A program made the translations under genes and the position numbers. The notes under the pieces were generated by a model. The model had not been told where the DNA came from and made no database searches. It saw only the letters and a list, made by a program, of their open reading frames with translations. A stretch of 64,000 nucleotides of DNA, taken from Ischnura elegans. Taxonomy: Eukaryota > Arthropoda > Insecta > Odonata > Coenagrionidae. Of this stretch, positions 25,245 through 61,863 are shown piece after piece; within the stretch, counting starts at the first letter, position 1, and each line of letters opens with the position of its first letter. Where the stretch lies: NCBI RefSeq assembly GCF_921293095.1, contig NC_060247.1, positions 110,937,111-111,001,110 of the forward strand. Direction: 5' to 3'.

Positions 25245-25424
25245 AACAACACATGGACATCCAACGGATGTCCGACGGATATCCAAGGCGGGCGGTGCGA
25301 ATGGGCCATGGATATCCGATGAAAATCCGGCGATATCCCTTGGACATCCGTCAGATATCCATATGTCCCAAAATCCGATATCCATAGGACGTCCCCTTCC
25401 GGATATTAATACCATTTTTTGCAT
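25245..25424. repeat. P1: cluster of GGATATCC/GGACATCC palindromes
   Basis: About 180 bp with a dozen variants of GGATATCC, GGACATCC, GGATGTCC and GGACGTCC, starting after CCCTAACAACACA. The design matches the iterated ends of P4 (27904-39102), whose ends carry GGACGTCC. No partner end was found, so it may be a solitary end of a related element. Confidence 0.55.
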
Positions 25425-25547
25425 ATTGTTGCAAGAATATACACCAAATAGATTCCTTCACATGATAGACAACCTTAACAAGGTGGAAGGATTCTTCATT
25501 CAAAAGTTTCATGGGTGTCTGCTTAGTAACCATTGATGAATGATTAC

Positions 25548-25930
25548 CCTGGCGAAAATGTGAGCGTTTTCAGATTGTTTAAGAACGCACCATGGAGGCG
25601 ATCATGAACAGCGAAGAACACTCAAAGAACACTATCCCAGTGCGTTCTCGAGCGGAAATGTGAACGCCTTGGAGTGTTCTCAAACACTCTACAGAGCGTT
25701 TCACCGAGCGTTTACCTATGTTTGCGACTGTTTGTCAATGTTTCCAAACGTTCATGAGCGCCCTGTGAGTTACCATCTTCATCGTTTTGGAGCATTTACG
25801 TACATTTGAGAACACCCTGTCTAGGCTATCGAGAGTGTTCATGAACGTAATGTAACATGCTAATGTGTTTTGCATAGTTCTTGAACGCTATGGGAACACT
25901 TGCCGGTGCGTTTATGAACTCTTGCATTGA
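25548..25930. repeat. P2: cluster of GAACGCTC/GAGCGTTC and GAACACTC units
   Basis: About 380 bp dense in GAGCGTTT, GAACGC, GAGTGTTC and GAACACTC in both orientations. It is non-coding. It looks like another iterated-end sequence, with a theme unlike its neighbours. Confidence 0.5.
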
Positions 25931-26073
25931 ATCAATTTAATAAAGAATAAATCAGTGAGATTCAGGTCTTACAGGGTCCACAAAGGAAATGAAAACCAGA
26001 TACAGTTTACTGTAATGATAAAACAATTATATTTAACTAAATATTACACACTTATTTACAACAACACCACACA

Positions 26074-26126
26074 ATCACATGAGTACTTTAGAAAATGAAT
26101 TCATCATGCATAACAAAGAGACCAGT
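26074..26126 (+). pseudogene. Possible LINE RT fragment, left flank of the U insertion
   Basis: The frame ending ..EFIMHNKETS at 26126 would join the RT piece GPGGIPPIVLKYG that resumes at 43487. This fits the Jockey-type RT pattern ..SGPDGIP. The flanks CCAGT/CCAGG next to the U ends are near-identical. The left part is too short to be sure. Confidence 0.35.
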
Positions 26127-26725
26127 GGCGGAATTCTGTACTCGGATACCGACGATCGTCGGTGTCGGTAGCTACCGACGATCGTCGGTAGCACCGATAG
26201 AAATGTGATTCACAAAACGCCGCTACCCACAGATTGTCGGTGCAACCGACAAATTCGTGACGTAATGCTTTTGTCGGTACGAAAGTGGCACCCGCACGCG
26301 AGGCTAGGCGCCTCGACCAATCATATTTCTCCTTTGTCTGCATTAAACAAATGAGGCTCCGAAAACGCCATCTGTTATTCGTCAGCCCGCGAAGAAGTTA
26401 AAAAGAGTTGATCACTGCTTTGTGAGATATTTACGATGTTTAATCACTCTGCGAACACAATTTCTTACTCCCGTTGGTGCGATGTGGCTTGTATTCCGAG
26501 ATTTTGCTGTATTTACCATCGGATTTTTTCTAGCCCAATTAAAAAATCCTTTATATTCAAGGATTCAACGGTCGTTGATAGAAGAACACCGGCAACATTT
26601 GGTGCTCAATGTATTGGAATTTTCAAGTCTAATTGTCTTGAAGAGGACTTTGTCTGCTAAATAATTGATCACCTACGCTTATTGTAATTGTATTTTTGGG
26701 ATTAGCAGTGACGAAATTATTTATA
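26127..26725 (+). repeat. Inverted copy of the U right arm
   Basis: Reverse complement of about 39361-39959, with only scattered differences. It makes copy 1 of U a long-inverted-repeat (fold-back) form. Copy 2 has the ordinary short left end instead. Confidence 0.75.
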
Positions 26726-28227
26726 TTACGTCGGTGTCGGTAAGCCGGTCCTACCGATAAGTCTCGGTACGAGCGATTGTCGGTGCGAGACACGTTTTAC
26801 CGACGATTGTCGTTATCCCACCGACAGTTGTCGGTAAACCCGTCGGTACATACCGACGATTTCAAAACGCTCGGTAGGACCTACCGACAAATTTTTAGCT
26901 ACATGGCGGACTTTTGTTTACACTTTTCGGCCTAAGCTGACGATTTTAAATCATAAACTACGACGCTAGATCCGTGGAAGCGCTCTAATTGTATGTTATT
27001 TATAATAAAAATGATTGATTAAACACTTGAAACGTAAAATTTACATAGTGGGAGCAGTATTTAACTTTACCAATGTTACACGTATATTACATTATGCGTT
27101 CCAATAGCGTAAGGTATCATACATTATAAATATTCCGTAATTTTAAGTATATAACGTTTTGCTTTGCTTTTAAATTACTCACAACAAGACACGATAGGTA
27201 TCTATTGTTGATTCGTAAAGTTTGGATCCGAAATTAATTTATATTTTCAATAAAAACGAATGCCTATTGATGCACTTCCAATGAAATATATACGTGGACA
27301 TTTCGTTCACTTTTATATTAACTTCAATTATACCCTATGTGAGCATCTGAGAATGGGGTTTATAATGAAAATAACTCTCCTACCTTCGTAAGTACTCTTG
27401 AGAGCATCAGACAGCAACGACGGAATAGAAAAAGCATATTGCTACTATATTTTAGAAGAATATAAATGGCATCACTTAACTCCTCTCACTGACGTCTTTA
27501 CCGGTGCACAAAACTTCCCGTAAAATTAATGCTGAATTTACTTCACCATACTAACCAAACACCGTACGGGACTTCAAGATAGATTTTCATTATTATATAC
27601 TATAAGAGCACTATATTACTATAAGAGCACTGAGTAGGTACGTACCGTGTATTCCATCGGTAGAAAGGGGCAAATAAAAAGAATGATTGCACGAAAAAAG
27701 GAAACATTTAATGAATTATTCATCATAAAACTACAAAAATTTCATTTCAACACGAGAAAACCTTCATACTTTCAACGGTATATCACAAATTAACACTGAT
27801 CCAGCATATTTAGTCAAAGTCATATCAACGCAAAGTTTGAAATAACACACAAATGGTATCAAAATGCAAAAGTTAACACTTCCAAATAGATAGCGTAAAG
27901 TATATACTGACACACAGCACACGGACACCTTTCGGACATCCGGTGATTGTCCGCCAAGTGGCCTATGGACGTCCTACGGACGTGCGAATTCATGCTAAAG
28001 GATGTCCGCTGCAAGTCCGCATGTCAGTAAAAAAGGTGGCCTACGGACGTCCTGAAAGTGTCCGCTCCGGACACCTTGAGGACACGTTTAGGTTAGGATT
28101 GCATTTTGTTCGATACAAATAAATAATAGGTCCAGACAAGAATTTAAATAAATAAGGCATCAATTCCATGCACAATATTTATTTGGCTTCTTAAAATAAT
28201 ACAATGCAAGAAACTACATACATATTA

Positions 28228-28331
28228 TTAAATTTTCTTCTTCCCCTGCAACCGCTCCTTGGCGTGCCTTAGCCAGTTTTGGATGGCAACCTCCACATCT
28301 TTTTCAGCGGTCATGCTCTCCTGCACTGCTC
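28228..28331 (-). CDS. P4 gene, candidate terminal exon
   Basis: The acceptor CATTATTACAG (minus strand) is followed by GAVQESMTAEKDVEVAIQNWLRHAKERLQGKKKI and a stop. The core VEVAIQNWLRHAKER closely matches VEVTVKSWLEHAKAR in the exon at 29672-29771. Such a repeated module would be unlikely by chance. The phase does not join directly to that exon, so an exon is missing between them or the copy has decayed. No known family was recognised. Confidence 0.45.
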
Positions 28332-29671
28332 CTGTAATAATGAAGTATATAAACATTTCATTGTAGCAAGAAATTGTATCTTGTACGTAACAAGCAGATT
28401 ACATAAGACAGGACGCTACAGTCTTATTAGTCACGTGTTTAACATTCTTAAGGTTTCAAAATTAGGAAACCTGTCCATTAGAGGCTGAATACATTTTACA
28501 AACTTTTCTTTGACTTTTTCTTGTTCTTAAATAAGAAAAGATTTTGAGTAAAAATATTAATATGTTAGTAATGTATATATTATGATTAAGAACATTTTTC
28601 ATAGAACATTTGTTGAACTAGATTTTAATCCCAAATATGAGAAGACTGTTTGCCTGTTAGACCCTGGTGCACCATCTAGAAAAAAATTCTTTGATCCATC
28701 CTTGCCAGACAGCTAAGTAGAGGTCTCGAAAAAGATAATGGAAAAAGCATTCAAATGGAGGATAATATTTCTGAACAATTGGTCTCTGCTTGAAGATTAT
28801 GACTACACTAGAGTGAATTGTGTTACATAAGCTGAAGCTAAGGAAGACTAATGCAGAGGAGCTGAATATGATATAGGAGTAAAGGAAACTAGAAAATTTA
28901 AAGGAGGAAGTTTAAGTGGACTAGATCTCTTGGGATTAGTGTGAAAACAGCCACACTGATTTGGCACACAAACCACTTAGCTGCATTGGCCGAGATGCAA
29001 CTTAAAAAAATAGAAACTTTGAAAAACTTGCTGCAGTTAAGGCCATTCCATGATTTAGATCTCCGAATTCTTCCAATCTTAATAATTAAAATAGATCTTC
29101 TAATGTAGTCTGGTATCGAGGCAAAAGTGAAAACCTAGCTCACTGGCAATATTCACATTTCGACAGAGACATAACAGGTGAATAGCAGCTAAAGCCTGCT
29201 GTGGGCTACTGAAATTTCTATAGCTCCTACAAGAACACCTAGTTCAAAACATCTTAGTTAGCTAGAGCTACTAGAAAATAGTAGCTTCTGTAGTACTGTG
29301 CAACTACCATCCCTGTTGAATAAGTTATCCCATTCTTAAGTTCTACAGGTGTTATACATCGAACTTTTATAGAGCATGAGATCCTTTTCAACCATGTTTT
29401 TGGTAATTATACCTCCCATATGCAGAACAAAAATTGTTTTCAAATGTTTGAATTACTTGGTAGTGGAATCTGCATCTGAAAATAATACATAACAATACTA
29501 TTTTCTCTACCTTTAGCATGAAAGGGTGAACCTTGTATTACAAGTTGTTCAATAATTATTTAAATTTACTTTATGTGAGCTCCCTTAACAGGAGCAACTT
29601 TCGAAAAAAGTATCCAGACCAAAATTATTCCTCCTTGCCCAAACCTATATAATAATCAAACGAATACTTAC
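28332..29671. other. P4 interior, no further exon recognised
   Basis: AT-rich. A patch near 28620-28700 (GACTGTTTGCCTG..AGAC) matches 46900-46960 and is probably a small dispersed repeat. Confidence 0.4.
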
Positions 29672-29771
29672 ACCTCTCTCTCATGCCTTGCTTTAGCATG
29701 TTCCAGCCAACTCTTCACTGTAACTTCCACACTAGAATTGGTGGCTGTATCGTCCTGGTTCAGAGCAACAT
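29672..29771 (-). CDS. P4 gene, candidate internal exon
   Basis: Bounded on the minus strand by TTCTTTACAG and GTAAGT. Encodes DVALNQDDTATNSSVEVTVKSWLEHAKARHERE, with a module V-x-V-x4-WL-x-HAK-x-R repeated in the exon at 28228. Acidic and polar, probably helical. Function unknown. Confidence 0.45.
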
Positions 29772-30478
29772 CTGTAAAGAATGAAGACAAATAAGTATAC
29801 AGACAATTATAAGAAGAGAGACATACAAACTTATAAATAGAGATAGGAACTAAATAAAAATACAGATAAGGTATTTTTATTCAACTCCACTACATGAAAG
29901 CTATAGTCAGTCAGTCAATTAATGCCTCCAGGTAAATATATCAGGTTCACGATACTCTACACCAAAATGTGTACCGATGGCTGTACGAAAAGATGCACAA
30001 GTTCTATTTTCTGGGTATAAGATTTCATGCAGCAGTTTGAGCAAATAAATGAACCATGTAACATAGCCGTAAGGTTTGTTTACACAATATATCACTTATA
30101 ATTAGACCTTGTTTAGATTCATCCCAAGTTTCTTACAGTCGTCCTATAGTTTCCACTAAATTAAATGCATGGATGACTAATAGCACAGTTACTTAGTTTG
30201 TAGTTAAATTAGTTTATAGTTTAGTAGGTTAGCAAAGTTGGGCAGAAAAAATATATTAAACGCTATAAAAGTTACGTCGGCATTGTAATTTTTTAATCCC
30301 TAAGCCTTATCTTTACTGACATAATAGATCATTTATTTATTTAGGACCTAATTTTTTTAATTATTAACCTAGTTCCATCAAACAGATAAAGAGTATAAAA
30401 ACTTTTTGTAAAAAGGCTAAACATTGGTGGTTATCCTATCATAACCTTAATCACCATATCCTATCATAACCCTTCGAC

Positions 30479-30516
30479 CTGAAGACGCTGGCAGGATAGC
30501 CAGCGAAACTGTTGTC
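30479..30516 (+). ncRNA. Hammerhead-like motif, copy 1
   Basis: CTGAAGA, then the stem CGCTGGC/GCCAGCG with loop AGGATA, then GAAAC and a GTC. This has the order of a hammerhead core with a very short third stem, as known in Penelope-like retroelements. I cannot form a convincing first stem with the flanks. A variant in reverse orientation lies at 32250-32287, and the sequence after both also looks alike, so it is at least a shared repeat tail. Confidence 0.3.
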
Positions 30517-32249
30517 AACCAACAATCTGACGCGGAAGAAAACCCTGGAGAAATGCAGAGATCAAACCATCGCCGCGGAAACCTACGCTCTAACATCCTA
30601 TCATAACATTAATGTTATTTTTCGATGCGTGCGTGAATATACATATCGAAAGAAATCACACGGTGTACTCCGATTTCAAAGAATTAATAATTTACGTGAA
30701 ACCTATTAATCATATATGCGTGTTGCAAAATCCCCCGGTTACACGTAAGTACAATTCCTAGTTATATATATATATTTTAATATCACGAGATGTGGGTCAA
30801 TTCCTAGTTATATTTATTGCCAAGAACCCTACTTGATTTGATTTAGGAACGGAACCAAACGGACCGTTCGGACAACAAATTCAGCCGTAGCCTACGTTAT
30901 CAAAACAACCCCAGATAACACAAAACATGTAATACACCTGTAATACAGCTGTATTACATGCATTATACATGGTGTATAGCAGATGTATACATCTGTAATA
31001 CAGCTGTATTACACGTGTAAAAGTAGCTCAAAAGTCCTGCCATACAGCTGTAATACACATGTATTACAGCTGTATTTTTCTGGAAAATACAGCTGTAATA
31101 CTCGTGTATTACAGCTGTATATGTACATGTACAGCAAATATACATGTGTATTACAGCTGTATATGTACATGTACAGCAAATATACATGTGTATTACAGCT
31201 GTATATGTACATATACACGTGTATTACAGCTGTACATGTACATATACACATGTATGTAGCTGTATATCCTATGTATGGATACATCTAAATTATGTTTCTT
31301 GCTCAATAGTATTCATTAGCTGACCTCATTATCTTAAACATGCTGATTCCTCTAATATTAGCTGCTCTGGGAATTAATAGAAGAATTTTCTCTGACATAA
31401 ATGCAATCAATGGAAAAATTACTTATCTGCCTAAACCTTACTTATGCTCTGTATTTCTAATTTCACTTGATCACACATCATCTTACCATAGCTACTCTAA
31501 GCAGCAGCTGCACTAGTTCAAATGCAGAAGCCCTTCATCTTCCTTGAGAAAACGTGATGGCCCTCATAACCTGAAGATCGAACATCATTGACAATATAAT
31601 ATGAACAGACAGAAACAATACATTTTACAGAGTAGTAAAAAAGGAGGACCATATACGATACCAGAGAGGAATAAAATGGATTGGACAAACCCTGAGTGCA
31701 TGAAGAGCAAGATTGAAGGGAAAATGGAACAGTTCTCGATGGAAAACATTTTATGAAGTTCACGGATAAAAGAAAGGGAAGTACGTAGGATGTGTTATCA
31801 AGCAGTGAGGACTAGCACAGGGAAGAGTGGAGGTTAGGACAATGAAGTAGTCAATCCTAGCAATTCCTGACCAATGACAAAGTGAATGTCATGCTGGGAA
31901 TCCTGAATTCCATGAGAAAGGAATGCATCCAATAACCATTTGTAATGCAAATTAAGAATATAGTGAAGACAAAAAATTCCTTCGTTTAAAAATTATCATT
32001 TAATGCACAATATGTACATCATTAAATATAACAGGAACTATACAAATTCTTTCATATAAAATTATCATTTAATGTAAAATGTATACATTATTAAATATTT
32101 ATCACACAAATCACATATATCACACAAATTGTGCATATTCTGTCATTCAAAAATTTTCAATTAATTTAAAGTTCATTATATACTGAAGTAGGTATATCAT
32201 AAGAGCCTTGGCTTCCGGGCATTCCTCCGCATTGAGTTGTCCATAGGTG

Positions 32250-32287
32250 TCGACAGTTTCTCCAGCCATCCTGCTGGCAGCTTCAGG
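32250..32287 (-). ncRNA. Hammerhead-like motif, copy 2
   Basis: Minus strand: CTGAAG, stem CTGCCAGC/GGCTGGAG with loop AGGAT, then AAACTGTCGAC. It is a variant of 30479-30516. It lies in P5 just left of the piggyBac. Confidence 0.3.
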
Positions 32288-33207
32288 TCAGAAGTAGTGA
32301 TGCATAAAATTGGGAATCTGTATGAACAGCAGCAACAACATGCAAGTGATCATGCAAATCAAATTTATTAATGTATACCAATGGTAAACATAACTAATCA
32401 CTAGAATATAGGATCAGTGCAAAATGAAATGGCAGAAATTCCCCCTAAAAGGAAGGATAAACACCAAATGGATTTAGGAGTACAATATCCAAGGTTTATC
32501 ACAACATGTCGCTAAGAAATGCCTTAACACTAGAATGCCGAAGGGTGTCATTTTGACACCCTACGCGTACATTTTTTACGGAGCTGGCCCTTAGAGAGTG
32601 TTGTAGAAAAAAATCTTTCGTGGCTTTTATTCATTTTTAGATCTTAACAAAACGACAGTAAAAGGGATACCCCCCCTAATTTTTTTCGTCTCAAAAATTC
32701 AAATTTACCTTGAATGCCGGAGGGTGTCATTTTGACACCCAGTATATTATATCATTTCTTTCTTTGGTTTAGGTGTCTCGTGGGATGTGGCTTGATAATT
32801 ATTTGTCAAATTAGTATAGTGTAGTACATTATCTTCATGTGTAGTACCTTTATGTATAGTATAGTATATTTTAGTATAGTATATTACCTTCATGAATGTT
32901 TGTTTTACATAATTTCAATGAGCATCGGCTGTACGTATACTACTTTTTCCAAAAGTTTAGCAGCTCGTTAGGTAAGTATATTCCGCTGCCTTTTGCAAAT
33001 GATTCGCCTTGAAACCAGCTAATTTTTTTTACCGAGGTGACACTTATATGCCCTGAAACATTGCAGTAAAGTGACGCGGCGACAATGCAGTTAGCTGCTG
33101 CCGAGCCTGTGTTCGGCTGCCTGGCTCGCGCGCGTGTTTGGCAGACTGGGTCGCTATGGTCGCGACCTGCTGCTTGACTTGCCTCGGCAGTTCTGTCTTG
33201 ATAATGG

Positions 33208-34224
33208 CACTGCATAGACGTGTTACGATGGAGCAATGTATTGAAATACTGAACGATATTTCTGGAGACGTGTCGGAGAAGGCGTCTGATGCAGATGTTG
33301 AGTCGGACAACGATTGGGTTGCGCAGGAGGTGCAATTTAGATCATCCAAAAATGATGAAAATAGTGAGCACGGTCAGTTTCAGTGTTTTGTATATTTCAG
33401 TTTAGTAATTTAATCACAAAAGATACACATATTTATTTTACAATACGCATATACACATAATTGAGATACTGGATCTGCACTGGTTATCGGGCAGAAAAGA
33501 AATTGTGCGTGGTCGTGACATGGTGTGCCGACGTGTAACGCTAGGTAGACGCTGGGTAGACTTCAAGGCGACGTCAACTCCTTGTTCAAGATCGTAAGAA
33601 GGAGATGGCCATGCTGAGGAATCATAACCTGGGCCAAACATAACCATTGACGAACAGCTGTTTCCAAGCAAAGCTAGATGTCCATTCAAGCAATTCATGG
33701 CACCAAATCCTGATAAGTATGGGCATAAATACTGGTTTGCAGTATATAAAGACAGTATGTATTTGGTAAACTGATTCCATTAAATTCCAGATTGACCAGA
33801 GGCGTCAAGGACGGCTCTCGTCAAGGTGGCGATCGCGTTTCAGATCATGTTGTAATGAAACGTATGCAACCCTACATGAGCAAGGGCAGGAATGTAACCA
33901 CTAGCATTTGTTTCGCATCACTTTTGCTAGCTCTACTCGAAACAAAAGGGTTCTTGCCTTTCAGGAACCGTAAATAAGGGAAGAATGGAAATACCTGGTG
34001 AAATAAAAGCTTCTCGGGAAGAGTTGTATTCAAATAAATTGAACAAAAATGGTGAATCTCGACTTACTGTTCATAAGGGCAAACAGAAAAAAATGTGTTC
34101 TTGTTCTATGATCTCTTCGCCCTCATATTGAAATTAGTAACAACTCTAACAAATCGCCCGAAACAGTAAGGTATTGTAATGAGATAAACTTTGAAGTAAA
34201 TATTATTGATCATATGGGGCGGAA
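33208..34224 (+). pseudogene. piggyBac transposase remnant
   Basis: A DDE-type cut-and-paste transposase that targets TTAA. Visible family landmarks are DEQLFP..R.PF..F (33650-33700), P.PDKYGHKYW (33700-33740), MQPYMSKGRNVTT (33860-33903) and the late PETV..N..IIDHMGRKY (about 34160-34224). The frame shifts between blocks. The C-terminal zinc-finger part beyond the inserted hAT-type element was not found. Confidence 0.75.
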
Positions 34225-34232
34225 ATACTAGG

Positions 34233-34495
34233 CATAGGCGCCGACTCCATGGGGCTTAAGGGGGCCCGAGCCCCCTCAAAAATCCGTAATGGGTGTGAGG
34301 AAAAAATGTGTCAGGCTTGTCGATTTTATACGGAGTGTCCAGATATCGAGAGATTCGAGTGATCAGGGTTCTAATGTTGATCATATGACTCTCCTAAAAT
34401 GCTTAAAAAACTTAAAACTCACTACTTAGAAAATTTCCCGGGGCATGGTCCCCGGTTTGGGCCCCCCCAATATTTTTTCTAAGTCGGCGTCCTTG
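34233..34495. mobile_element. hAT-type non-autonomous element in piggyBac 1
   Basis: Ends CATAGGCGCCGACT and CAAGGACGCCGACTT (inverse), G- and C-rich borders, exact 8-bp duplication ATACTAGG (34225-34232, 34496-34503). It is the innermost level of the 26-43 kb nest. Confidence 0.85.
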
Positions 34496-34503
34496 ATACT
34501 AGG

Positions 34504-35370
34504 TCAGAACTAGAATCAGGTGATTGCCTGTTTTTTTCTTTCCAGAATACTTTTGACTTGGTGACTATATATTCCTGAATACTATATATAAGGAAATAAC
34601 TTCACAAAAGATGTCCCGAATTATTTTTACAAAATTTATCGGAATAGCTTGCTTTCCGTTACATTGAGTCAACGAATATCTTGCAACTAAATCCAGAACT
34701 GACAAGGGATTGTTAAGTATAGATAAAATGCAACGAAAACAGAACTGTTGATTTTTGTAAGCTCAGTGAAAAGTCAGTAAACCTACGGCCAAAACAGACC
34801 AAAAGTGCCAGAATGTAGAGAATCTACTATTTTGATGAAGCTTTTCGTAAGTCTGTATGAAAAAGCATTCGATTTCTTTTTGGGTTCATACGAGGTTTTT
34901 GCATATTATTTTTAAAAATGTCGTAGTTTTGTGACCGCAATGGTTTTATTTTAATTTTCGTCTTTTGAAGCACACTTCTACAGTCTGTGACGAAAAATTA
35001 ATGAAAAAAGTTAACAATAATAATAAGAAGAAAAACAATGTCTTATTCATTTTATTCTATCTATTCATTCCTGTCATATTCATTTTATTTTTTTATGCAC
35101 ATAAAATTTAACCAATTGCAGTGAAATAAAAAAGTATTCAATGATTATATATAGGTATTATTACAACCTTCATGCGTCCTCCGACGTTTCAGCGCAATCT
35201 TTTCGATGGATGCCGCATTCCAGGAGAGTATTTTTTTGTAAATTTTTTTCTTCAGTGATACTCTATTAAAACATTAAGTTTTTTAATGTTAGGGCAAAAA
35301 ATCAGTATTAAACAAAAGTTGACACTATTTACTCCAAAATAAAACTAATCTGCAACGTAAAATGCATATT
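34504..35370. other. piggyBac 1, 3' part without readable coding
   Basis: AT-rich sequence between the small inserted element and the right end. No transposase block is recognisable. Confidence 0.4.
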
Positions 35371-37420
35371 AAAGCATGGGTGTCAAAATGACACCCTCCC
35401 GGCATTCTAGTGTTAAGAAGTTTTAATTGCACATGAAATCTCCAAAATATCATTAAAACCATAATACTTTCGCACAACAACACATCAGGTCTTGAATAAG
35501 TTATATCTAACCATTAACAATAAGCTTCCACTCTTCACAATCACTATTTACATGGCATTTATAAAAGCACACTTAAACACATAGGCTTAGTAAAAGGAAA
35601 TCTATAAGTAAAACAATAAGTCCTAGAAAAATGTATATGAATAATATACACTGACAATAACGTTTTGAAATTGAAATTATGTACGAAGAAATAATGAAAA
35701 ACTCCTAGTTTTCCAAAGCCATATTTTTTCAATGATTCTAAATTTTTAGGCATGAATGGCACCGTCCTCTTTGATAATCACTGAAACCATTAAAAAAAAC
35801 CTAATAAATTGTAAATTTTCAAATCTTACAATTTGCTACTAAGCTCGAATACGTACCACAAGTAATTATTCGGCCAAAGATGTTGAAATTTCAAGTACAC
35901 AGGAGCAGACAACAGCATCAGCCCTGGGCCACGACAAAATTTCGGTGTTGATGTATTTTTTCGTTTTAACCAGCCGAAGGAATGTAATCCTATTATTACA
36001 AAACTGGAATTAAAAAATTCGAAATGAATCAAGGAAAAGATTCGTCGCAAAAGCGACTCGTCGAGATTTTAATTGCATCTTAAAATTTAGCATTCATACT
36101 ACGAAATATCACAGTCAATCTTCTCATGAACAACACACAAATAAAGCAATGAAAAGCGAAGTTTCATCCATTATTATGTATCGGAATATGCAGATTCTAG
36201 TCAAAAAACGTAATTGTCTTTATTTGTTGTAAACGACCGTAAGATTACTTCATACCGGCATTGACACAAACAAATATTTTTATTGAATACAAAAGTAGCA
36301 TCATTAAAAAGTTATTGTTACACTTTCTGGTACTTAGTAAACACTACGACAATCATCTCAGTAACCCAGATTAAATATTGTATTTTAATCACAAAATTTC
36401 ACACATTCCATTGATGAATAGAAAACAAAGAAGCATTAAAACACTCGTCACGAACCTCGCCGGATTATCTGAACCGGAATAAATTTTTAAAAATTACTAC
36501 TTGTGCACAGTTCAAACCAAATGATTGAAATACGTGGATCAGCACTATTAAAAATTTAAGGTAATTGTATTCCAGGAACCATTATGTGTAGAAAAACTTA
36601 CCTCACGCAAGCGGGAAGACGTTGTCGGGTGCCACTTGTCCCTTCGGCATATTTGAAGCCATTTCGCTCTTCTCTCAGTATTTTGAGGGAAACTAAAATT
36701 TTTAAACACGTCCTTGGTGCTAATGGAGCAATTAGGAGCCGAGCTACAACATATTGTGCCGTATTTCTTCTACAATTAACGGAAAATCTTGCCGAGCAAC
36801 AGCTGGCCACATTAACTTTCACAACATAAACAACGAGTGCGGAGAAAAAAAAGAGGACTGTCTAATAATATGGCGATTGAGCGCAGGAGGCCATGGCGCA
36901 GCGTAGTACGTTAAGCATATTAATTAACAACAAAACATTACCATCAGCGTTCATATTTAAATATGGGTTCCAAAAAGGGTACCGGCATTATAAATACAAT
37001 TATAGATCGAAAATAAATCCTATTATGAAATGATTACTACCTGAATATTTGTTCAAGAATATTAGAGGCGATGATGCCTTCATACTCGTGTATTTCAGCT
37101 GTATTTGTACATATGTAAAAATACACATGTAATACCACTGTAATACAGCTGTATAAATACATATGTATAATTGGTGTATACGTACAGCTGTATTACATAC
37201 GCTTATTATTTCCACATGTAGAAATACACGAAAAATACAGGTGTAATACAGCTGTATAGATACATATGTATAACTGGTGTATTCTTACAGCTGTATTACA
37301 TGTGCATCATTTCCACATGTAAAAATACGCGAGTAATACATGTGTAATACAGCTGTATAGATACATATGTATAACTGGTGTATTCTTACAGCTGTATTAC
37401 AGAAGTGTGTGTTATCTGGG

Positions 37421-39102
37421 ACAGGTTCTATTTTATACGCTAGCACTTACATTATTTCCTATACGTTCTCGCGTACAGAGACTATAGTACAAGAACTTCC
37501 ACTTTAAATTATATCATGTAAACAAGGAACAAAAGCGAAAATTTCACCATGAACAACGGAAAAAGACGCTACCTTTAGTTGCCAAGTAACGGTTTTACCA
37601 AGACGGTCATGTTGTTCCAAGCAGAGCCATATTTTTCCTCGAGATGTTACAGGCTGAGTTATAAGAAATATAAGGAGCATGCGGAAACACTATACTGCCG
37701 CCAGTGAACGCCAAGAAAAAATTATTTAGATGTCACATCAAACTTACTTGGAATTCAGCAGCATCTTTGTAACCGCCAAACCGCCATGAAACCATGCTGT
37801 CTCCGGTGTTCCGTTTCGGTTCATCTGTTAGAAAGGAGGAACGGAGGAATGTGGAGAACCAAGGGAGAACACCTTCCTGTATCGCGGAGTAGCGGTAGAT
37901 TCAAAATTCGTTCGCCACCAAAAAAACTAGAATTTCAATATAAAGTAAAGGTACGGCAGTACTTACCTTCTATTGCCTATCCTTAAATTGGACAATTACA
38001 ATGTCTAATCTGGGAATGAGGCCATCGATGCCGTGATAATTTTAGGAGAATTCTTACAATTAAAAATTAAAATAAATTTAACGCGTTATGTTTCATTAAA
38101 ATACTTTCCAATCAATCGCCTCTGAGATTTTTAATCCCTTGAGAGTAAATATTAATTAATCAATAAGTTGAAAGAGTTCATTTAACCTGTAGGAATGGAA
38201 TGTCCCCGAGACGTCCGCAGGACATTGGTACATAATATAAAATTTCAGTAAAAATCGATAAATTCCATTATTCCTGTTGTTAATTTTTGTAAAAGTTGCT
38301 AAATTTAAGTAATTTTTATAATCATGAAAGAGTACGGGTTTATTGTTCATCCAACGCTTCTCAACCGTACAACATGCGGAAATTTTTAATTTTTTGAAAA
38401 TTGCTAAAATTGTTGCTAAATTTGTTTAAACTTTAAAAATTGTTATAAATAATGTAGAGAGTCATAAGTTCGTTCAATTGTTGTTGTTTAACCCGTAAGG
38501 CATGTAGAAATTTTTAACGCTCGTAAATGTTACTTAAATTGTTGCTAACTTTGTTTAAACTTAATTAATTGTTATAAACAATGTAAAACTTAAAAATAGC
38601 GTACATTTGTTGTTCTTAAACTATAGAAGTGGTAAAAATGTCAAATTTTTTTTTCGTTAAATAGTTTATAATTTCCTCCCAGAGTCCACACTCCAACAAG
38701 AGGATTACACTTGGTTACCTAAAATAATCCTCAAAATATCTCTTCCTCCACGAAAAATTTCCTCTTCCTCGATCGGGAGGAAGTATTCTGGCTTCAGAAA
38801 CGAGAGAGAGTTTTTTTTCTTTCTCCCTTCTCCTATACTCCCTACTCGGAGGAGGATCTCGAGACTTTCTCTCGGAGTTCCTCCTTGAGGAGGTGAGTGT
38901 TTTAAGAGGAAACCAAAACTCCGAAACCCAGCATAATGGGACACTAGCTGGACGTCCGCTGGACATCCAAGATAGGACAGTGTGCGGACGGATGGCCAGG
39001 ACAGCCGGCGGATGTCCTCTGGCTGTCCTGAAAATCCGCGGACACTGAGAGGACGCGACGGACGCGCAGCGGACGTCCTCTGGCAACGATGTGCTGTGTG
39101 GG
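37421..39102. other. Right arm of P4
   Basis: Holds the candidate first exon at 37748-37824 and AT-rich spacer. At 38750-38900 there is an inverted purine/pyrimidine block with repeated CCTCC and GGAGG strings, followed by the palindrome-rich end. Confidence 0.5.
37748..37824 (-). CDS. P4 gene, candidate first coding exon
   Basis: On the minus strand CTTTCTAACAG is followed at once by ATG and the frame MNRNGTPETAWFHGGLAVTK.. to a GTAAGT donor. About 140 bases upstream a further donor (GGCAATAGAAG then GTAAGTACT, near 37965) ends a probable 5' untranslated exon. The pair of matched donor and acceptor sites supports a real spliced transcript from the P4 right end. Confidence 0.4.
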
Positions 39103-39954
39103 TATGTCACTCAAGTTCACAATCACAACACTTGACGCGATGATACTGATGATACCTTCCGTGACATCCGCGGAATCTCGGTGTTTTTCTCAACGAATGT
39201 ATTTTAAATAGCCCAAAATGTGAATTCAAGCGACAAAAATGTTTTCTAATTATATAATTACCCTTGTGGAAGTATCGGACTTACGGCGAACAATGAGGCA
39301 AACGATGTAAACAAGCCGTGGCTCAAGATGAAGGTACACATTGTTACAATACTAATAAAAATAATTTCGTCACTGCTAATCCCAAGAATACAATTATAAT
39401 AAGCGTAGGTGAACAATTATGTAGCAGTCAAAGTCCTCTTCGAGACAATTATACTTGAAAATTCCAATATTGAGCACCAAATGTTGCCGGTGTTCTTCTA
39501 TCAACGACCGTTGAATCCTTGAATATAAAGGCTTTTTTACTTGGGCTAGAAAAAATCCGATGGTAAATACAGCAAAATCTCGGAATACAAGCCACATCGC
39601 ACCAACGGGAATAAGAAATTGTGTTCGCAGAGTGATTAAACATCGTAAATATCTCACAAAGCAGTGATCAACTCTTTTTAAACAACTTCTTCGCGGGCTG
39701 ACGAATAACAGATGGCGTTTTCGGAGCCTCATTTGTTTAATGCAAACAAAGGAGAAATATGATTGGTCGAGGCGCCTAGCCTCGCGTGCGGGTACCACTT
39801 TCGTACCGACAAAAGCATTACGTCACGAATTTGTCGGTTGCACCGACAATCTGTCGGTAGCGGCGTTTTGTGAATCACATTTCTATCGGTGCTACCGACG
39901 ATCGTCGGTAGCTACCGACATCGACGATCGTCGGTATCCGTGTACAGATTCAGA

Positions 39955-42900
39955 GGCGGAATTCTGTACACCGTACCGACGATTGTCGGTGTCGGTAAGC
40001 CGGTCCTACCGATAAGTCTCGGTAGGACCGGCTTATCGACGCGTCCTCAGAGTTAGGATGGGGGAGAGTGCGCTTTGGCTAATGCGCATGTAGTCAAGAT
40101 GGTGTCACGTGACGGTGGGAAGGAAGCTCAGAGGGATGGGGAGAGTGCGCTTTGGCTACTGCGCACGCAGTCAAGATGGTGTCACGTGACATTGAAACGT
40201 TGGATACCGTATCGCCGTAAGATAAACAAACATACGAATTTCCGACAAGGTGAGTAGTTTTTAAAGTAAAACCGTGATCTTAGAGTGAATGATAATTATT
40301 TCCTTTCTCGATGTATTTCATTTGTTATACTGAATATATCTGGGGCGTTTAGATTCTTTTCTCCCCTTAATTTCTAAAATACCGTAGCGTCAGCATGGCA
40401 ATGTTTTGCTATGCATTGAGTTGTAAACAATGTTTCGCGAAAGGAAGTGGAATTCATTTTCATTGATAATTTCTTTAGATTGATTCTTCATAGTGTCAGT
40501 GTTCATACAATTTCCGTACCCTTCTAGCCTCAACGGTATTCCTTTTATAATGGAATTTGTGTGTAGTGTGTTTGGAATGTTTGACACGCCTTGAAATGGG
40601 GATATTTTAACCTTTTGATTATTCCTTTAAAATATGGGCTTTTACTTAGATATTTCTTACGGCTGACTTGTATTAACTATAAAAAGGTTTCTCTCTCTTT
40701 AGGTTTCCTGCAAGTGAAGAAGAAGGAAATCATCGATGAGGAATGTAAAAGGAGCATATTTCGTGCCCAGCAAGTGCACCAAAATGTGTTTTATCAAAAA
40801 AGTTTATCATTAAAATATGCATTTATCTCCAAATAAAAGTGGAAAACATCAAGTGCATTGTTTAGTCCAGAAGGAATCCTATTAAACTTGAAAAATGTAT
40901 TATTTTAATGCTTTGGTGGATATGCAAATACTGTAGACTAGTAATAGTGGGAATAGTTTAAAACTATGCATTCTTTTACTTTCCATGGTGAAATAATTTT
41001 ACTATCATTATATAAATTACATGTTTAATATTATAAATACAGCCAAATCTTGGAACGTTTTATTCTTGACGCAATGTATGAGCTGCGAGTCGTAGAGTAA
41101 GCCCCTAGTGTAGAAAAAGGTATATTTTACTTAAGTAGTTGTTGGGGATCTTACGCAAAATTTGAATTTAGACTTTGCTATTTCTGATATTCTTTTGAAA
41201 AATTTAATTGTTGACCATTTTAGATGCTGAAAGCATACAAAAGGAAAACAAAGCTTTACGACATAAATTTCGTAGTTGAAAATTTAAATCATATGTGAGA
41301 GAAAAATGGAAATTAATTGTAGATATAATTCAATAATTACTTTTTCTAAGAGTCTTTGTTACTATTTTCGAGTTTTTCGAAGTAATTGAGCCCGATTGTA
41401 TTTATTTAGTCCTCATTGTATCACCGTAATACGGTAACTTCATGCCACCCGTGCTACGGTAGATTTAAATTTCCCGCACTTCTTCCCACCGTCACGTGGT
41501 AACCATGTTGACTACAAGGATCTGCTACTGCGCAGCCCGAAAGCGCCCTCTACCCCAATCTCTGAGGACGCGTCACACGTTTTACCGACGATTGTCGTTA
41601 TCCCACCGACAGTTGTCGGTAAACCCGTCGGTACATACCGACGATTTCAAAACGCTCGGTAGGACCTACCGACAAATTTTTAGCTACATGGCGGACTTTT
41701 GTTTACACTTTTCGGCCTAAGCTGACGATTTTAAATCATAAACTACGACGCTAGATCCGTGGAAGCGCTCTAATTGTATGTTATTTATAATAAAAATGAT
41801 TGATTAAACACTTGAAACGTAAAATTTACATAGTGGGAGCAGTATTTAACTTTACCAATGTTACACGTATATTACATTATGCGTTCCAATAGCGTAAGGT
41901 ATCATACATTATAAATATTCCGTAATTTTAAGTATATAACGTTTTGCTTTGCTTTTAAATTACTCACAACAAGACACGATAGGTATCTATTGTTGATTCG
42001 TAAAGTTTGGATCCGAAATTAATTTATATTTTCAATAAAAACGAATGCCTATTGATGCACTTCCAATGAAATATATACGTGGACATTTCGTTCACTTTTA
42101 TATTAACTTCAATACCCTATGTGAGCGTCTGAGAATGGGGTTTATAATGAAAATAACTCTCCTACCTTCGTAAGTACTCTTGAGAGCATCAGACAGCAAC
42201 GACGAAATAGAAAAAGCATATTGCTACTATATTTTAGAAGAATATAAATGGCATCACTTAACTCCTCTCACTCTATGACGTCGTTACCGGTGCACAAAAC
42301 TTCCCGTAAAATTAATGCTGAATTTACTTCACCATACTAACCAAACACCGTACGAGACTTCAAGATCGATTTTCATTATTACTATAAGAGCACTGAGTAG
42401 GTACGTACCGTGTATTCCATCGGTAGAATGGGGCAAATAAAAAGAATGATTGCACGAAACAAGGAAACATTATTGAATTATTCATCATAAAACTACAAAA
42501 ATTTAATTTCAACACGAGAAAACCTTCATACTTCCAACGGTATATCAAAAATTAACACTGATCAAGCATATTTAGTCAAAGTCATATCAACGCAAAGTTT
42601 GAAATAACACACAAATGGTATCAAAATGCAAAAGTTAACACTTCCAAATAGATAGCGTAAAGTATGTCACTCAAGTTCACAATCACAACACTTGACGCGA
42701 TGATACTGATGATACCTTCCGTGACATCCGCGGAATCTCGGTGTTTTTCTCAACGAATGTATTTTAAATAGCCCAAAATGTGAATTCAAGCGACAAAAAT
42801 GTTTTCTAATTATATAATTACCCTTGTGGAAGTATCGGACTTACGGCGAACAATGAGGCAAACGATGTAAACAAGCCGTGGCTCAAGATGAAGGTACACA

Positions 42901-43490: not shown

Positions 43491-43783
43491 CCAGGACCAG
43501 GTGGTATTCCACCTATTGTGCTTAAATATGGTCAAGAGATTTTAGCATATCCTCCCTCACTCAGTCTATCCATCCAACCTAAGAAGTAGTTATGTAGTCC
43601 CAACCCATAAATCAGGTGATAAGACTCACACCACTAATTACAGACCTATATAAATCCAGTCATTTGTTGTTAAGATCTTGAGAGAGAGTCTTGCACTTAA
43701 GCCTAATATCCTCTCCTACAAACATATAGCTATACCAGAGCACCATGGTTTTCATGAAGAAAGGTCTTCCATTACGAATCTCA
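43487..43783 (+). pseudogene. Jockey-like LINE RT fragment
   Basis: Translated with shifts it reads GPGGIPPIVLKYGQEILA.., VPTHKSGDKTHTTNYRPI, KILER.. and then IPEHHGFHEERSSITNL. These are the usual early RT motifs of Jockey/CR1-type LINEs (GPDGIP, P.hKSGd..NYRPI, HGF..rS..TNL). It is broken by stops and frameshifts. The left border is the U insertion. On the right it joins mariner sequence inside one open frame. Confidence 0.65.
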
Positions 43784-50400: not shown

Positions 50401-50712
50401 GATTATGGACAAAATAATCGGGAGCGCCTGACCTTCAGCACACGATTATTTTGCCCAAATAATCGCCCCATAATCGTATGATGATAATCGGTACATAATC
50501 GTCTCAAGAATCGTGCGCTGTCTAGTTTGATTAAAATATTCACCGATTATTCACCGATTCTCTGCGTAATCGATTATTTCGGCCCGATTTTTTTCCTGAA
50601 TCGATTATGCTTGAATTTTATCATGATACGATTAATCGATTACGGAAAGTTTTTACCCATCACTAACCTAATCACTTCTTTTGGCTAGGAACAATTGAAC
50701 CACCCTCCATAC

Positions 50713-54900: not shown

Positions 54901-54938
54901 TATTGTTGTACGGATGAATGAACTGCGTAACCGACTTT

Positions 54939-58388: not shown

Positions 58389-58458
58389 GGGCGTACCCAG
58401 CGGGGGGCAAGGAGGGGGCACCTGCACCCCCCAGAGTAAAAATAGCATACGTCTTTAA

Positions 58459-60920
58459 CACTAGAAGGACGGCAGGGGTCATTTGACCCATTTTCAGAAT
58501 TCAAATTTATTTTTCTCTTATTAAAATATTTTTTTAAATTTTGAAACTTTTTGACTTTGTTCATTTTGGTCTATATTTTGATAAATTAGTGAAAATTCAA
58601 CAATAATGTTTTGTTTTAAATTTTTATGACGTGTTATACCTAGAAGGACGGCTAGGGGTCATTTGACCCACAACTGGTTTTCGCGCTATTTTCATGCCCG
58701 TTGGCACTTTAGTGCCATGTATATCACATTATCAGCAAGAGGCTAGTGTGGTAGATGATTTGCTTCATTTTGAATCTGGAAGTACCCGGTTCAATGCCAG
58801 TTTCGTCCCAAGGGCTCCTATCTGTATTCGAAAACCTAGGCATAGCGACTTGTTGTGCACAATCTTTCGATATTTTTTGGGCAGCAAAGGGAAATAAAAC
58901 CTTTTCAATCCTTGATTTGCGTAAATTCGTTTTATTGCTCAATGATTATTGTATTACCCACACCGGAAAATCGTCACGTATCCCAAGAATTGTTTTCCGT
59001 CGTCCAAGATTCAGAGCTCTTATAGACATTATTTTCAATATCGACTCATCAGATTTATGAATAACTTACATTTTTCTGGCCTGACGACACTGTCACTTGA
59101 CCTAGCCCCTTTGCCGTGCGTCCAGCATTAGTGCCGCCTGACCCCGTCGGGGTTTGGGGCGGGTTGACGGCACGCTGCGTCCTGGGGAAAAATCCCGTCT
59201 CTTTTTGAGAGAGCGGAAGAATTGGGTGGACTGTAAAATTCTACTGTAAATCCTACCCTTGGAATCCGCACGTAGATCGGAGAAGAAGCATTACTGCAAG
59301 TTCCTGGAAGATACGAATCAGGATACGGTTGGCGGTTGAGTCCCTGCCTTTCGAACGGCAATTAGCGTTACTTCTGAAAATGTTGTCCTTTTGTATGAAT
59401 TGCTAATGCTCTCCAGCTCTCTATACCTCCAATGCAACTAGAGAAGATTCTACCATAATGCGCTTTCGTTTGTAGATTTTTTGCATGCATATCAGTAGCG
59501 AGTTGAGGAAGAAAGTAAGAAGTCGAGAAATATATCAAGATAAGAGAATCGTCGCGATTCAAATAGCTGAAGGTAATATTGAAGATCAGTCTGGAAGTGA
59601 ATCGTAAACATCAGTTCAAGGACATTCTGACCAATCCATCAACATCTGCATGTGATGGAAGAGACGAAGTCCAAGATAGCGAATCCGATGGCGACTTTGG
59701 CGTGATCGCAAATGCGCAGCTCTATCCAACAAAATGCAGCTGCCCTTTTATGAGGTAAATTCCAAATAAACCAGACAAATTGGAATCGAGTACTGGGTTT
59801 TGACAGATGTGAAATGAAAATTCAGCCTAAATGAATTTCCATATTGTGGCAAAGATGATGATTGACCATCAAATCACGCGTTGGGGAAATAAATATATTA
59901 TACTATAGTTACTAAAGTGACCGTAACATACAAGAATTCACGAATAAATGTATCTTGTAACAATTATTTTCCATCCATCCAGCTGGCAGGAAGTCATAAA
60001 AAATGGAAAACTTCTCTTGCATGGACGATCTGAAAAAAACAGGCGTGACGCACAAATATCCATGACCCCTAAAATAGCCATGTAATCCATTCAACGCGAG
60101 TGTTAAAAATACCTTACGTAGAATCAGGCAAACTAGAACAATAATGTACTTTCACTCAGCAGCATGATCTCAGACGACACTATTTCCGAAACTAATAAAA
60201 GAATCCCAGAGACTATCGTATTTCATTGTAAAAACAAAGCGGGAGTAGATATGATGGATACCATGTATCAATTTATTTACACGTCTCCAAATCCAACAGC
60301 CGTATCTCCACGAGCACAAAAAAGAAAAAGGTGCCAAATACCATCAAATTGAATCATTGCACCAATTTCCTTTCCATTTTCCAAATTCCTTTTCATGTGC
60401 AAATGGCTGGTGTCTTAACACCCCCTGCCACACGCTGTTAAGCGGCTTGCGGGTTAATGTGTAGATTTAGATATAGATGAATAAATCGTCCAATGAACGC
60501 ATTCAGCGCAAAAAAATATTTTGTGGAAACAGCGCTGAAAAAATACTGTCTGTCTGAGATTTACAACAAAGTAATAAGTTTTAAAAATTTTAATGCAAAT
60601 TTTGTAAACCCAGTACCCCTATTGTTTAAACATGTAACACAACTTTTGTATTGACTATATGTATTCTCATTATTTGATTTGCAATCGACTACTACATACG
60701 GTTTAATTCATGATTCTTTAAAATAATTGCTATTAACTTTTGACGATGGAAATAATATTTAATAATGTTAAATAGTGTTTTTAATGAACTGATTCAACAA
60801 TTAATACGATTAAACTGAATATTGGTTGAAAATTAGGCGCTTTATTCCAAAATACATTTTAGGGGTCAAATGACCCCTAGCCATCCTTCTAGGTAGCGCG
60901 AAACTCCCGTCCTCCTAGTG
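58459..60920 (+). mobile_element. piggyBac-like transposon 2 (degenerate)
   Basis: TTAA at 58455-58458 and 60921-60924. The left end is CACTAGAAGGACGG with AGGGGTCATTTGACCC and a repeat of this motif at 58641. The right end has the inner site at about 60861-60894 and CCCGTCCTCCTAGTG at the tip. An acidic stretch (DGRDEVQDSESDGDFG, near 59655-59700) and a late core segment (FHCKNKAGVDMMDTMYQ, 60219-60270) are all that remain clearly readable of the transposase. Confidence 0.8.
60164..60352 (+). pseudogene. piggyBac transposase remnant, late core
   Basis: Reads ..NKRIPETIVFHCKNKAGVDMMDTMYQ.., matching the family pattern P..V..YN.tKgGVD..DqM, where the Asp is part of the catalytic set. It ends early with RKRCQIPSN. 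The preceding two thirds of the protein are not readable here. Confidence 0.65.
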
Positions 60921-61363
60921 TTAAGGAAAATAGGGCTGGATTGAAACAAAAGTTTTCAAAAATTTACTTTAAAGCTACGATTAATATTAATTTAAGACAT
61001 ATAAGTAAAATAAAAATATATTTTCAAGCCAATAATTTTAAAACTAAAAAAGGGCTGTAATATTTTCTTTAAATGTTGCTTTCATTCACCTTTTCCAAGC
61101 TAAAATGTTTTAAACTTCAATGGGCGTACCCAGCGCACTAAGGATTCAACACTTGACTATTAATCTCTTGGCACAAACATTTTTGCTGGGGTATGCGTTC
61201 ACACGATCTTTTAGGTCTGCGCACATAGGGAGAGGAGCTGGGGGGGCTGCAGCCCAGCTTGGGTATTTGTTTTACACGATTCGATTCGATTCTAGGTAGG
61301 ACTGGTAATTTTGTTCGGGCCCCCACTACTGCTGTGAGGTTACCCCTCACTTGTAACCCCCTT

Positions 61364-61863
61364 CCCAGTGAGAAATGGGTGGTGGAATCCACGTGGAACC
61401 CACGTGGAATCCACGTTGAGTGGTGGATATTTGGTGGTGGTGGATATTGAGTGGTTGGACCCACGTGGAATCCACGTTGATTTCAAGTGGATTTGTGGCG
61501 ATTGTCATAAAATGTTAAACAGAATTTCTAATTTGTGGAACTTAAATCTCTGGTGACATTGCGTCATTTATCATCCTGAAACCACGCTAGTTATGTGAAA
61601 ATGTATCACACATTCTATTATTATATAATTCGTGGAAAGGCAGCCATGAGAGCACATGAAAAATCGTAGACACATATATAGAAGGTTTAGATATAGAGTG
61701 GTTGAGGTTTTAATGGTTTTAGGACAGCACCAACTGCTGTTTTAATTTTTCCACCAAATTTCCACGTGGGTTCCACGTTGATTCCACGACCAAAAACACG
61801 TGGTAATCACGTTAATTCTCCACGTGGGTTCCACGTCGATTCCACCACCCATTTCTCCCTGGG
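61364..61863. mobile_element. Element P6: 500-bp element with CCACGTGG-rich ends
   Basis: Inverted ends CCCAGTGAGAAATGGGTGG / CCCAGGGAGAAATGGGTGG (inverse), followed on each side by iterated CCACGTGGAA and TCCACGTTGA units. TT flanks both ends. The centre (about 61500-61740) is AT-rich. It is a short, non-autonomous example of the P-type design. Confidence 0.75.

What the first reader, a model, noticed from the sequence alone, without database searches (positions are those of the whole stretch)
25245..61863. A group of elements whose ends are arrays of one private palindrome each
U (CGACGATCGTCG), P4 (GGACGTCC), P5 (TACAGCTGTA) and P6 (CCACGTGG) each have 100-360 bp at both ends packed with one self-complementary word and its variants. 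P1 (GGATATCC) and P2 (GAACGCTC/GAGCGTTC) look like single ends of the same kind. P4, P5 and P6 also have similar tips (CCCAC.., CCCAGAT.., CCCAGTG..) and 2-3 bp duplications. EnSpm/CACTA elements have iterated subterminal sites, but not usually perfect palindromes in a different theme per family. The words may be dimer binding sites that co-change with each transposase.
Basis: partly seen in the sequence, partly recalled or inferred. Interest (0 to 1): 0.85.

Follow-up and report, generated by a model that had tools for sequence, protein, structure and literature searches.

The report
Animal CACTA transposons with palindrome-array ends
Several unrelated-looking jumping genes in this animal-like genome belong to one known kind (CACTA), and each family carries its own repeated palindrome at its ends, usually set at almost the same distance from the cutting point, which looks like a swappable address label on a fixed machine.

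Summary
The arrays are real for P4, P5 and P6, weak for P1, and absent as stated for P2. P4, P5 and P6 are closed mobile elements with CCC tips and 2-bp target duplications, the published signature of animal CACTA (TRC/EnSpm) transposons. P1 and P2 are one element (E1) with a CCC tip. U differs (GGCGG tips, 3-5 bp duplication). A scan blind to tips led to another closed member (P7, word TCAAGCTTGA). Sampling around a Transposase_21 gene on contig C6 revealed a 14.5-kb element (T) with CCC tips and arrays of TGTATACA at both ends, so one array family does carry a CACTA transposase; its target duplication is ambiguous. Best reading: phased binding sites for an element-encoded dimeric, TNPA-like protein that positions the transposase, with a family-specific word in a conserved frame. 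Membership is well supported; the binding protein and co-change with the transposase are not shown. A plant CACTA element with inverted-pair subterminal repeats is in print; I found none like this for animals in the papers I could search.

The parts
25241..26125 (+). E1 element, left part: tip CCCTAACAACACATGG, P1 array of GGAYRTCC (about 25255-25400) and the P2 region (25547-25930); continues beyond U at about 43492
   Evidence: copies start at query 39-44 and run to the query end; GGAYRTCC centres; empty site of U in two E1 copies
27909..39102 (.). P4 element (CCCACACAGCACA tips, word GGACGTCC and variants), interrupted by P5; window copy has a damaged left tip
   Evidence: copy edges; closed copies TT/TT on C16 and TA (or TATA) on C11
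27909..28095 (+). P4 left array
38941..39102 (-). P4 right array
30910..37420 (.). P5 element, tips CCCAGATAACAC/GTGTTATCTGGG, flanks AC/AC; carries a nested piggyBac-like element (32524-35416)
30910..31275 (+). P5 left array of TACANNTGTA (17 units)
37086..37420 (-). P5 right array of TACANNTGTA (13 units)
61364..61863 (.). P6, a 500-bp non-autonomous element, tips CCCAGTGAGAAATGGG, word CCACGTGG, flanks TT/TT
   Evidence: 40 near-full-length places scored of 816 candidates, others about 98% to the window copy; 26 of 30 loci with identical 2-bp flanks, 0 of 29 with identical 3 bp
26126..43491 (.). U element(s), tips (T/G)GGCGGAATTCTGTAC, flanks CAG/CAG (3-5 bp readings possible); not of the CCC kind; at least two copies or pieces, interrupted by P4

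Best explanation
P4, P5, P6, E1 (P1+P2) and two elements found elsewhere in this genome (P7 in locus L064, and the C6 transposase element T) are animal CACTA (TRC/EnSpm) cut-and-paste transposons. Shown: CCC tips; 2-bp duplications of no fixed sequence for P4, P5, P6 and P7; many near-identical copies; a family word built of two inverted half-sites at fixed spacing, repeated near the tips; a dyad centred 28.5-29.5 bp from the tip in 9 of 11 ends; frequent 11-bp steps between dyads; and, for T, a Transposase_21 gene between two arrays of one word. Inferred: an element-encoded DNA-binding protein (TNPA-like, perhaps a second gene of T) binds the dyads as a dimer, spreads along one face of the DNA because sites are often about one helical turn apart, pairs the two ends and brings the transposase to the CCC tip. 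The word is the family-specific address and changes between families; the distance from tip to dyad is kept because the catalytic machine is kept.
For: Tips and duplications: P6 26 of 30 loci, the window's included; P5 AC/AC in the window and AA/AA in L032/L033, which share flanks and count as one site; P4 TT/TT on C16, TA on C11; P7 AA/AA with the empty site in 4 of 4 other P4 copies that cover it. Same signature in print for animal TRC: CCC tips, 2-bp repeats in 7 of 14 S. mansoni copies, Aedes tip CCCAGTCAAC, Hydra tip CCCAGCCAACATTGAC. Transposase: PF02992 gives 26 matches from 44 candidates, all over the cut-off, none in 14 control genomes; one 60-aa piece gives 111 matches from 187 candidates (150 scored): 7 at 98-100%, the rest at 36-62% identity. 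T on C6: left tip and TGTATACA array, transposase match 47.5 bits in an 882-aa frame, right array and tip; its left end is multi-copy, 532 candidates, edge at query 4-6 in 38 of 39 other scored places. Fixed half-site spacing: 30 of 35 TACA..TGTA pairs at gaps 0-6 have gap 2 in P5; 24 of 24 TGTA..TACA pairs at gaps 0-6 have gap 0 in T. Register: 9 of 11 ends, 0 of 3000 circular shifts; one end per family 5 of 6, 0 of 3000. In copies: 54 of 56 P6 ends at 29.5, 18 of 19 P5 ends at 28.5-29.5 (5 distinct 80-mers), 5 of 5 P4 left ends. A dyad scan that ignores tips led to P7; of 40 places scored from 741 candidates, 14 others span it tip to tip, 24 stop inside at 481.
Against: No binding protein is shown; the second gene of T rests on open frames read by eye in 60-bp samples. 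Only one element with a transposase was read at both ends, and its tips conflict: 11 of 12 tip bases match if both tips have four C, but then the flanks are GT and TA; the GT/GT duplication needs four C on the left and three on the right. E1 and P4 share a half-site, so words are not fully private; E1's far end was not found. P4, E1 and P2 arrays are weak by strict palindrome counts. Of 574 pieces taken as controls, 20 held three or more equal dyads; those loci also contain P5 and P6 arrays, so this control is impure. The strict word gives T's left end a first dyad at 59.5 (a degenerate GTATAA lies at 28.5), and the window's P6 right end misses. Words were chosen after seeing the arrays, the ends of one element are not independent, and arrays start just inside the tip anyway. 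U, not of this kind, has dyads at 30.5 at both ends, and one of two ends of a hAT in the window falls at 28.5 once an 8-bp offset is removed, so the register may not be special to CACTA. An end 96% identical to T's left end lies 9.6 kb from a transposase only 53% identical to T's, which speaks against strict pairing if they are one element.
Confidence: 0.6

Rival explanations
1. They are ordinary animal CACTA elements whose subterminal repeats happen to be self-complementary because the arrays grew by local duplication of a short stretch; symmetry has no function.
For: Tandem growth is visible: 42-bp and 101-bp units in P5, repeated blocks in T's right end. Different subterminal motifs per family are known in plant CACTA (PMC2613891).
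Against: The two ends of one element share the word without sharing the same array (P5, T), half-site spacing is rigid and the register recurs in families with unrelated words. Within P5 the central dinucleotide is self-complementary in 21 of 30 units.
Confidence: 0.23
2. Families moved by other superfamilies (PIF/Harbinger, hAT, Chapaev and the like) that converged on palindromic ends; the CCC tip is a coincidence.
For: Palindromic subterminal words also occur in a hAT of this window (45355-50665) and in U.
Against: 2-bp duplications of varied sequence with CCC tips fit TRC; T carries Transposase_21 between such ends. But no transposase was found inside P4, P5, P6, P7 or E1.
Confidence: 0.08
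3. The arrays are hairpin or cruciform structures acting on single-stranded or extruded DNA, or piRNA or origin signals, rather than double-strand binding sites.
For: Perfect palindromes can extrude; stem-loops are drawn for the subterminal repeats of soybean Tgmt* (PMC2613891, figure legend). Nothing here excludes it.
Against: The dyads are short (8-10 bp) and mostly loopless, and often phased by about one helical turn, which suits protein binding to duplex DNA. This is inference.
Confidence: 0.07
4. Unrelated satellites.
For: T's left end carries a tandem repeat of about 166 bp behind the palindromes.
Against: Arrays sit in inverted pairs just inside tips with target duplications, and P7 has empty sites.
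Confidence: 0.02

Closest known systems
Animal CACTA / TRC elements (SmTRC1 and relatives; Hydra Spongebob = EnSpm-4N1_HM)
   Same: CCC tips and 2-bp duplications; Transposase_21 in SmTRC1 (PMC1636069 and PMC4298943, passages read)
   Different: The words subterminal and palindrom do not occur in the SmTRC1 paper; no palindrome arrays described in the passages read of either
Plant CACTA (En/Spm, Tam1, soybean Tgm)
   Same: Subterminal repeats that differ per family, thought to be bound by a variable element-encoded protein while the transposase stays conserved; in Tgmt* 4 and 24 repeats are drawn as 2 and 12 palindromes (stem-loops) (PMC2613891, passages; general anatomy PMC8978399, passages)
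   Different: CACTA tips and a 3-bp duplication in Tgmt*; there the palindromes are drawn as stem-loops made of paired inverted repeats, not as 8-10 bp loopless words; no fixed distance from the tip mentioned in the passages read
hAT elements with iterated subterminal motifs (Hermes)
   Same: Transposase contacts its end through multiple domains (search listing and start of abstract only, PMC10368747); the hAT in this window has TAATCGATTA-type repeats
   Different: 8-bp duplication and TAGNG tips; hAT dimerisation domain

Membership tests
Animal CACTA (TRC/EnSpm) | tip begins with CCC | tested here: met
   E1, P4 (copies), P5, P6, P7 and T; window P4 left tip is mutated
Animal CACTA (TRC/EnSpm) | 2-bp target duplication | tested here: met
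   P4, P5, P6, P7; T inconclusive (GT/GT only if the tips have unequal length); E1 not closed
Animal CACTA (TRC/EnSpm) | Transposase_21 transposase | tested here: inconclusive
   met for T (a 60-aa part alone scores 20.6 bits, under the cut-off of 28.6); none found inside P4, P5, P6, P7 or E1; one P4 right end on C9 has a transposase 7.2 kb inward, in the direction expected from two short P4 frames, element not closed
Animal CACTA (TRC/EnSpm) | subterminal repeats | tested here: met
   weak for E1 (p=0.083)
Animal CACTA applied to U | CCC tip and 2-bp duplication | tested here: not met
   GGCGG tip; CAG or CCAG duplication against E1 empty sites
PIF/Harbinger applied to U | 3-bp duplication of TWA or CWG type (recalled) | tested here: inconclusive
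   CAG/CAG is one possible reading
PIF/Harbinger applied to U | DDE_Tnp_4-type transposase and Myb-like partner (recalled) | not tested
   no search made
Kolobok / piggyBac | TTAA duplication (recalled) | tested here: not met
   P5-P7 flanks are 2 bp and varied; only the nested element 32524-35416 and another at 58455-60924 have TTAACACTAG ends in the window
Chapaev | 4-bp duplication (recalled) | tested here: not met
   0 of 29 P6 loci share even 3 bp; one P4 copy (C11) shares 4 bp, TATA, which is ambiguous

The most novel reading that the evidence does not exclude
Animal CACTA transposons use a modular end code: a conserved catalytic frame (CCC tip, a dyad centred about 29 bp inside, further dyads often in 11-bp steps) into which each family plugs its own palindromic word, read by a fast-changing dimeric protein. 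Families in one genome would thereby be kept from moving each other's copies, and short non-autonomous elements would advertise which transposase they follow.
Probability: 0.4. Interest if true: 0.77.

Novelty: new variant of a known kind. Interest (0 to 1): 0.57.

Why it matters
How a transposase tells its own copies from those of close relatives is, as far as I know, largely open for CACTA elements. A genome with many CACTA transposase lineages (111 matches), each possibly with its own readable palindrome at a fixed distance from the cut, would let word and protein be matched directly and allow orphan short elements to be assigned to their helper by sequence alone.

Tried and rejected
Whole-window palindrome density is too blunt: only P5 stands out. 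Exact-palindrome counts miss P2 and U and are marginal for E1 and P4. A tip scan for inverted pairs with equal 2-bp flanks over all 64 trinucleotides was swamped by the arrays themselves and by repeated copies, and CCC was not the commonest, so I draw nothing from its counts. Open frames inside P4 and P5 show no evident transposase; they were not searched against families. A pattern search for the T tip (17+6 against 6+7 for the reversed control; no second place near T on C6) shows that this 15-base tip is not shared by T's other end. The E1 copy beside the C6 transposase first looked like the element's end; reading its flank showed it to be inserted into T's right array. Positional association of transposases with 213 array ends: 7 inward and 3 outward pairs within 15 kb; one inward pair is by construction, one is that E1 insertion, and two outward pairs are one duplicated place; this is suggestive only. 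Predicted positions for other ends in C6 and C9 were wrong. No structure prediction was made. Literature: 9 searches answered; none listed a paper that, by its title or the start of its abstract, is about palindromic subterminal arrays in animal CACTA elements. Subscription journals and Repbase are mostly outside the library, so this is weak evidence of absence. On rereading for the report I found the soybean legend that draws palindromes; I lowered interest, confidence and the novel case slightly for it and for the conflict in T's tips.
Full report
What the window is. The window is part of contig C2 of a 1.72-Gb genome in 110 contigs, eukaryotic by its size and mobile elements; the species was not identified. 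The region from 24 to 62 kb is a nest of mobile elements: E1 is cut by U, U by P4, P4 by P5, and P5 by a piggyBac-like element with TTAA ends.

The observation. P5 is beyond doubt: its left and right ends hold 17 and 13 units of TACANNTGTA, against shuffle maxima of 4 and 3 for the best dyad in 1000 shuffles. P6 and P4 are real but smaller. P1 and P2 are one element: 36 of 40 scored genome places cover both, and 32 of them start at the CCC tip (query 39-44; tip at 25241) and reach the end of the query. The words given for P2 do not occur exactly. U has few exact words.

Tips and duplications. P6 is a 500-bp element; 40 near-full-length places were scored from 816 candidates, the others about 98% identical to the window copy. 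28 full-length copies other than the window's agree with each other at 99.6% on average, so the burst is recent. Of 30 loci, 26 have identical 2-bp flanks and none of 29 has identical 3-bp flanks; the four exceptions include two loci with the same flanks and one with a shortened tip. P5 has AC/AC in the window and AA/AA at another site; four full-length or nearly full-length copies, the window's included, are 99-100% identical and carry the nested element, and older ones of about 90-97% lack it. P4 places are 95-97% identical to the window's right part and 97-100% to its left end; closed copies have TT/TT on C16 and TA (or TATA) on C11. CCC tips with 2-bp duplications are what DeMarco et al. 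found for animal CACTA elements (PMC1636069, passages), and a Hydra element in PMC4298943 has the tip CCCAGCCAACATTGAC with 2-bp duplications (passages).

A transposase between arrays. PF02992 (Transposase_21) has 26 matches in this genome. Near one with an 882-aa frame, on C6, lay an E1 copy. I sampled the surroundings in 25-60 bp pieces and read the ends. The left end is CCCCTATGAAAAAATG at 12730194, followed by an array of TGTATACA palindromes. The right end is a longer array of the same palindrome, ending TTTTCATTGGGG at 12744679. With four C at both tips, 11 of the first 12 bases match, but the flanks are GT and TA; with three C on the right, the flanks are GT and GT. I leave this open. 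The E1 copy is inserted in the right array. The left end is a multi-copy family with a sharp edge at the tip. A 60-aa piece of the frame reads DITLQWNTDGVKIFKSSKVSLWPIQVAVNELPFKKRRENIMLCGLWYGPSKPNMNTYLQP; alone it scores 20.6 bits to Transposase_21, under the 28.6 cut-off, but the longer stretch scores 47.5. Samples on the other side of the transposase have open frames on the opposite strand (read by eye); they may be a second gene.

A blind check. Scanning all longer loci and the window for repeated dyads, without regard to tips, flagged 285 of 3351 pieces, most of them P5 and P6 copies. Among the rest was a 533-bp insertion in a P4 copy (locus L064, 739-1271): tips CCCAGATAGCA and CCCACATAGCA, flanks AA/AA, the empty site present in four of four other P4 copies that cover it, word TCAAGCTTGA. 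Of 40 places scored from 741 candidates, 14 others span it tip to tip (one more lacks the first bases) and 24 stop inside at 481. A second array in the same locus (word CTTATAAG) ends in GCTGCGCGGG but its other end was not found. The scan also flagged arrays that are not CACTA-like: the hAT, U, GC-rich hairpin repeats in L060, and AT-rich stretches.

Geometry. Half-sites have fixed spacing: TACA-2-TGTA in P5, TGTA-0-TACA in T, GGA-2-TCC in P4 and E1, GTGG-3-CCAC between neighbouring P6 words. In P5 the central two bases are self-complementary in 21 of 30 units, mostly GC. In P4 the variants (CG 4, CA 2, TG 2) would fit decay of CG. Measured from the tip, a dyad centre falls at 28.5 or 29.5 in 9 of 11 ends of six families; none of 3000 random rotations of the arrays reached this, nor did the version with one end per family (5 of 6). 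The two misses are explained in part: the window's P6 right end has a mutated word that other copies have intact, and T's left end has a degenerate word at that place. In E1 and T's right end another dyad lies still nearer the tip, at 18.5. The commonest gap between dyads is 11 bp (17 of 55 gaps). Among copies the register holds in 54 of 56 P6 ends, 18 of 19 P5 ends (5 distinct sequences) and 5 of 5 P4 left ends. Cautions: words were chosen by eye, arrays start just inside the tip in any case, and U (30.5 at both ends) and one of two hAT ends (28.5) come close as well.

Mechanism. For En/Spm (PMC2613891, passages): a transposase acts with a separate element protein, TNPA, that binds the subterminal repeats, and repeats and proteins differ between families. 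The simplest reading of the present arrays is the same division of labour with a dimer that needs two-fold symmetric sites. Sites about one helical turn apart lie on one face, which suits side-by-side binding; a constant distance from tip to a site suits a constant contact with the transposase. Binding, dimerisation and co-change are inferred, not shown.

What would change my mind. A transposase lineage tied to several unrelated words. One hint against strict pairing exists: an end 96% identical to T's left end lies 9.6 kb from a transposase with 53% identity to that of T; whether they are one element is unknown.

Novelty. The superfamily is known. Family-specific subterminal repeats are known from plants, and in soybean Tgmt* they are drawn as palindromes of paired repeats (PMC2613891, figure legend). 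Short loopless palindromic words with fixed half-site geometry and a shared register in animal CACTA elements did not appear in the titles and abstract starts listed by my nine answered searches, nor in the passages read. I therefore call it a new variant of a known kind.

Noticed in passing
window 45355-50665: A hAT element with TAGAGATGGGC and TAGTGATGGGT tips, 8-bp duplication ACCTAATC (after setting aside a small insertion), a hAT dimerisation domain in the frame 47755-49326 (6.4e-15) and TAATCGATTA-type palindromes at both ends: the same kind of end array in another superfamily.
   Followed up: partly
window 43980-45353: A 1.37-kb element TGCCCCGTTTACAC...GTGTAAACGGGGCA with CTA/CTA flanks, inserted at the left duplication of the hAT; ACGATCGT words near both ends.
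   Followed up: partly
window 58455-60924: A second element with TTAACACTAG...CTAGTGTTAA ends, piggyBac-like by its tips (CACTAGA tips are listed for the piggyBac family Kenshin in PMC4298943).
   Followed up: no
L107 and C6:12730400-12730650; one search places: Behind the palindromes of T's left end lies a tandem repeat of about 166 bp, with different copy numbers in different copies.
   Followed up: no
L060 3060-3620: GC-rich repeats of the type GGCGGCTTCGCCGCC inside a P5 copy; strong hairpins by eye, origin unknown.
   Followed up: no
L064 2110-2391: Another dyad array (CTTATAAG, GAATTC) ending GCTGCGCGGG; probable further CCC-tip family, other end not found; an imperfect dyad lies 28 from the tip.
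   Followed up: partly
window 43492-43700 and L134, L135: E1 copies continue into a stretch that by eye resembles a LINE reverse transcriptase; E1 may be chimeric or nested.
   Followed up: no
small contigs C13-C17: About 43 of the 111 transposase matches lie on C13-C17 (my count by eye); C16 is 11 Mb long and the hit positions on the others are under 20 Mb. May be sex or B chromosomes.
   Followed up: no
C9 near 104.84-104.91 Mb and 105.28-105.36 Mb: Matches from three searches recur with the same offset of 442,857 or 442,858 bp, a large recent duplication.
   Followed up: no
window 28220-28330 and 29690-29760: Two short similar frames on the minus strand of P4 (VEVAIQNWLRHAKERLQGKK and VEVTVKSWLEHAKARHE) that look like repeated exons of an unknown protein.
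   Followed up: no
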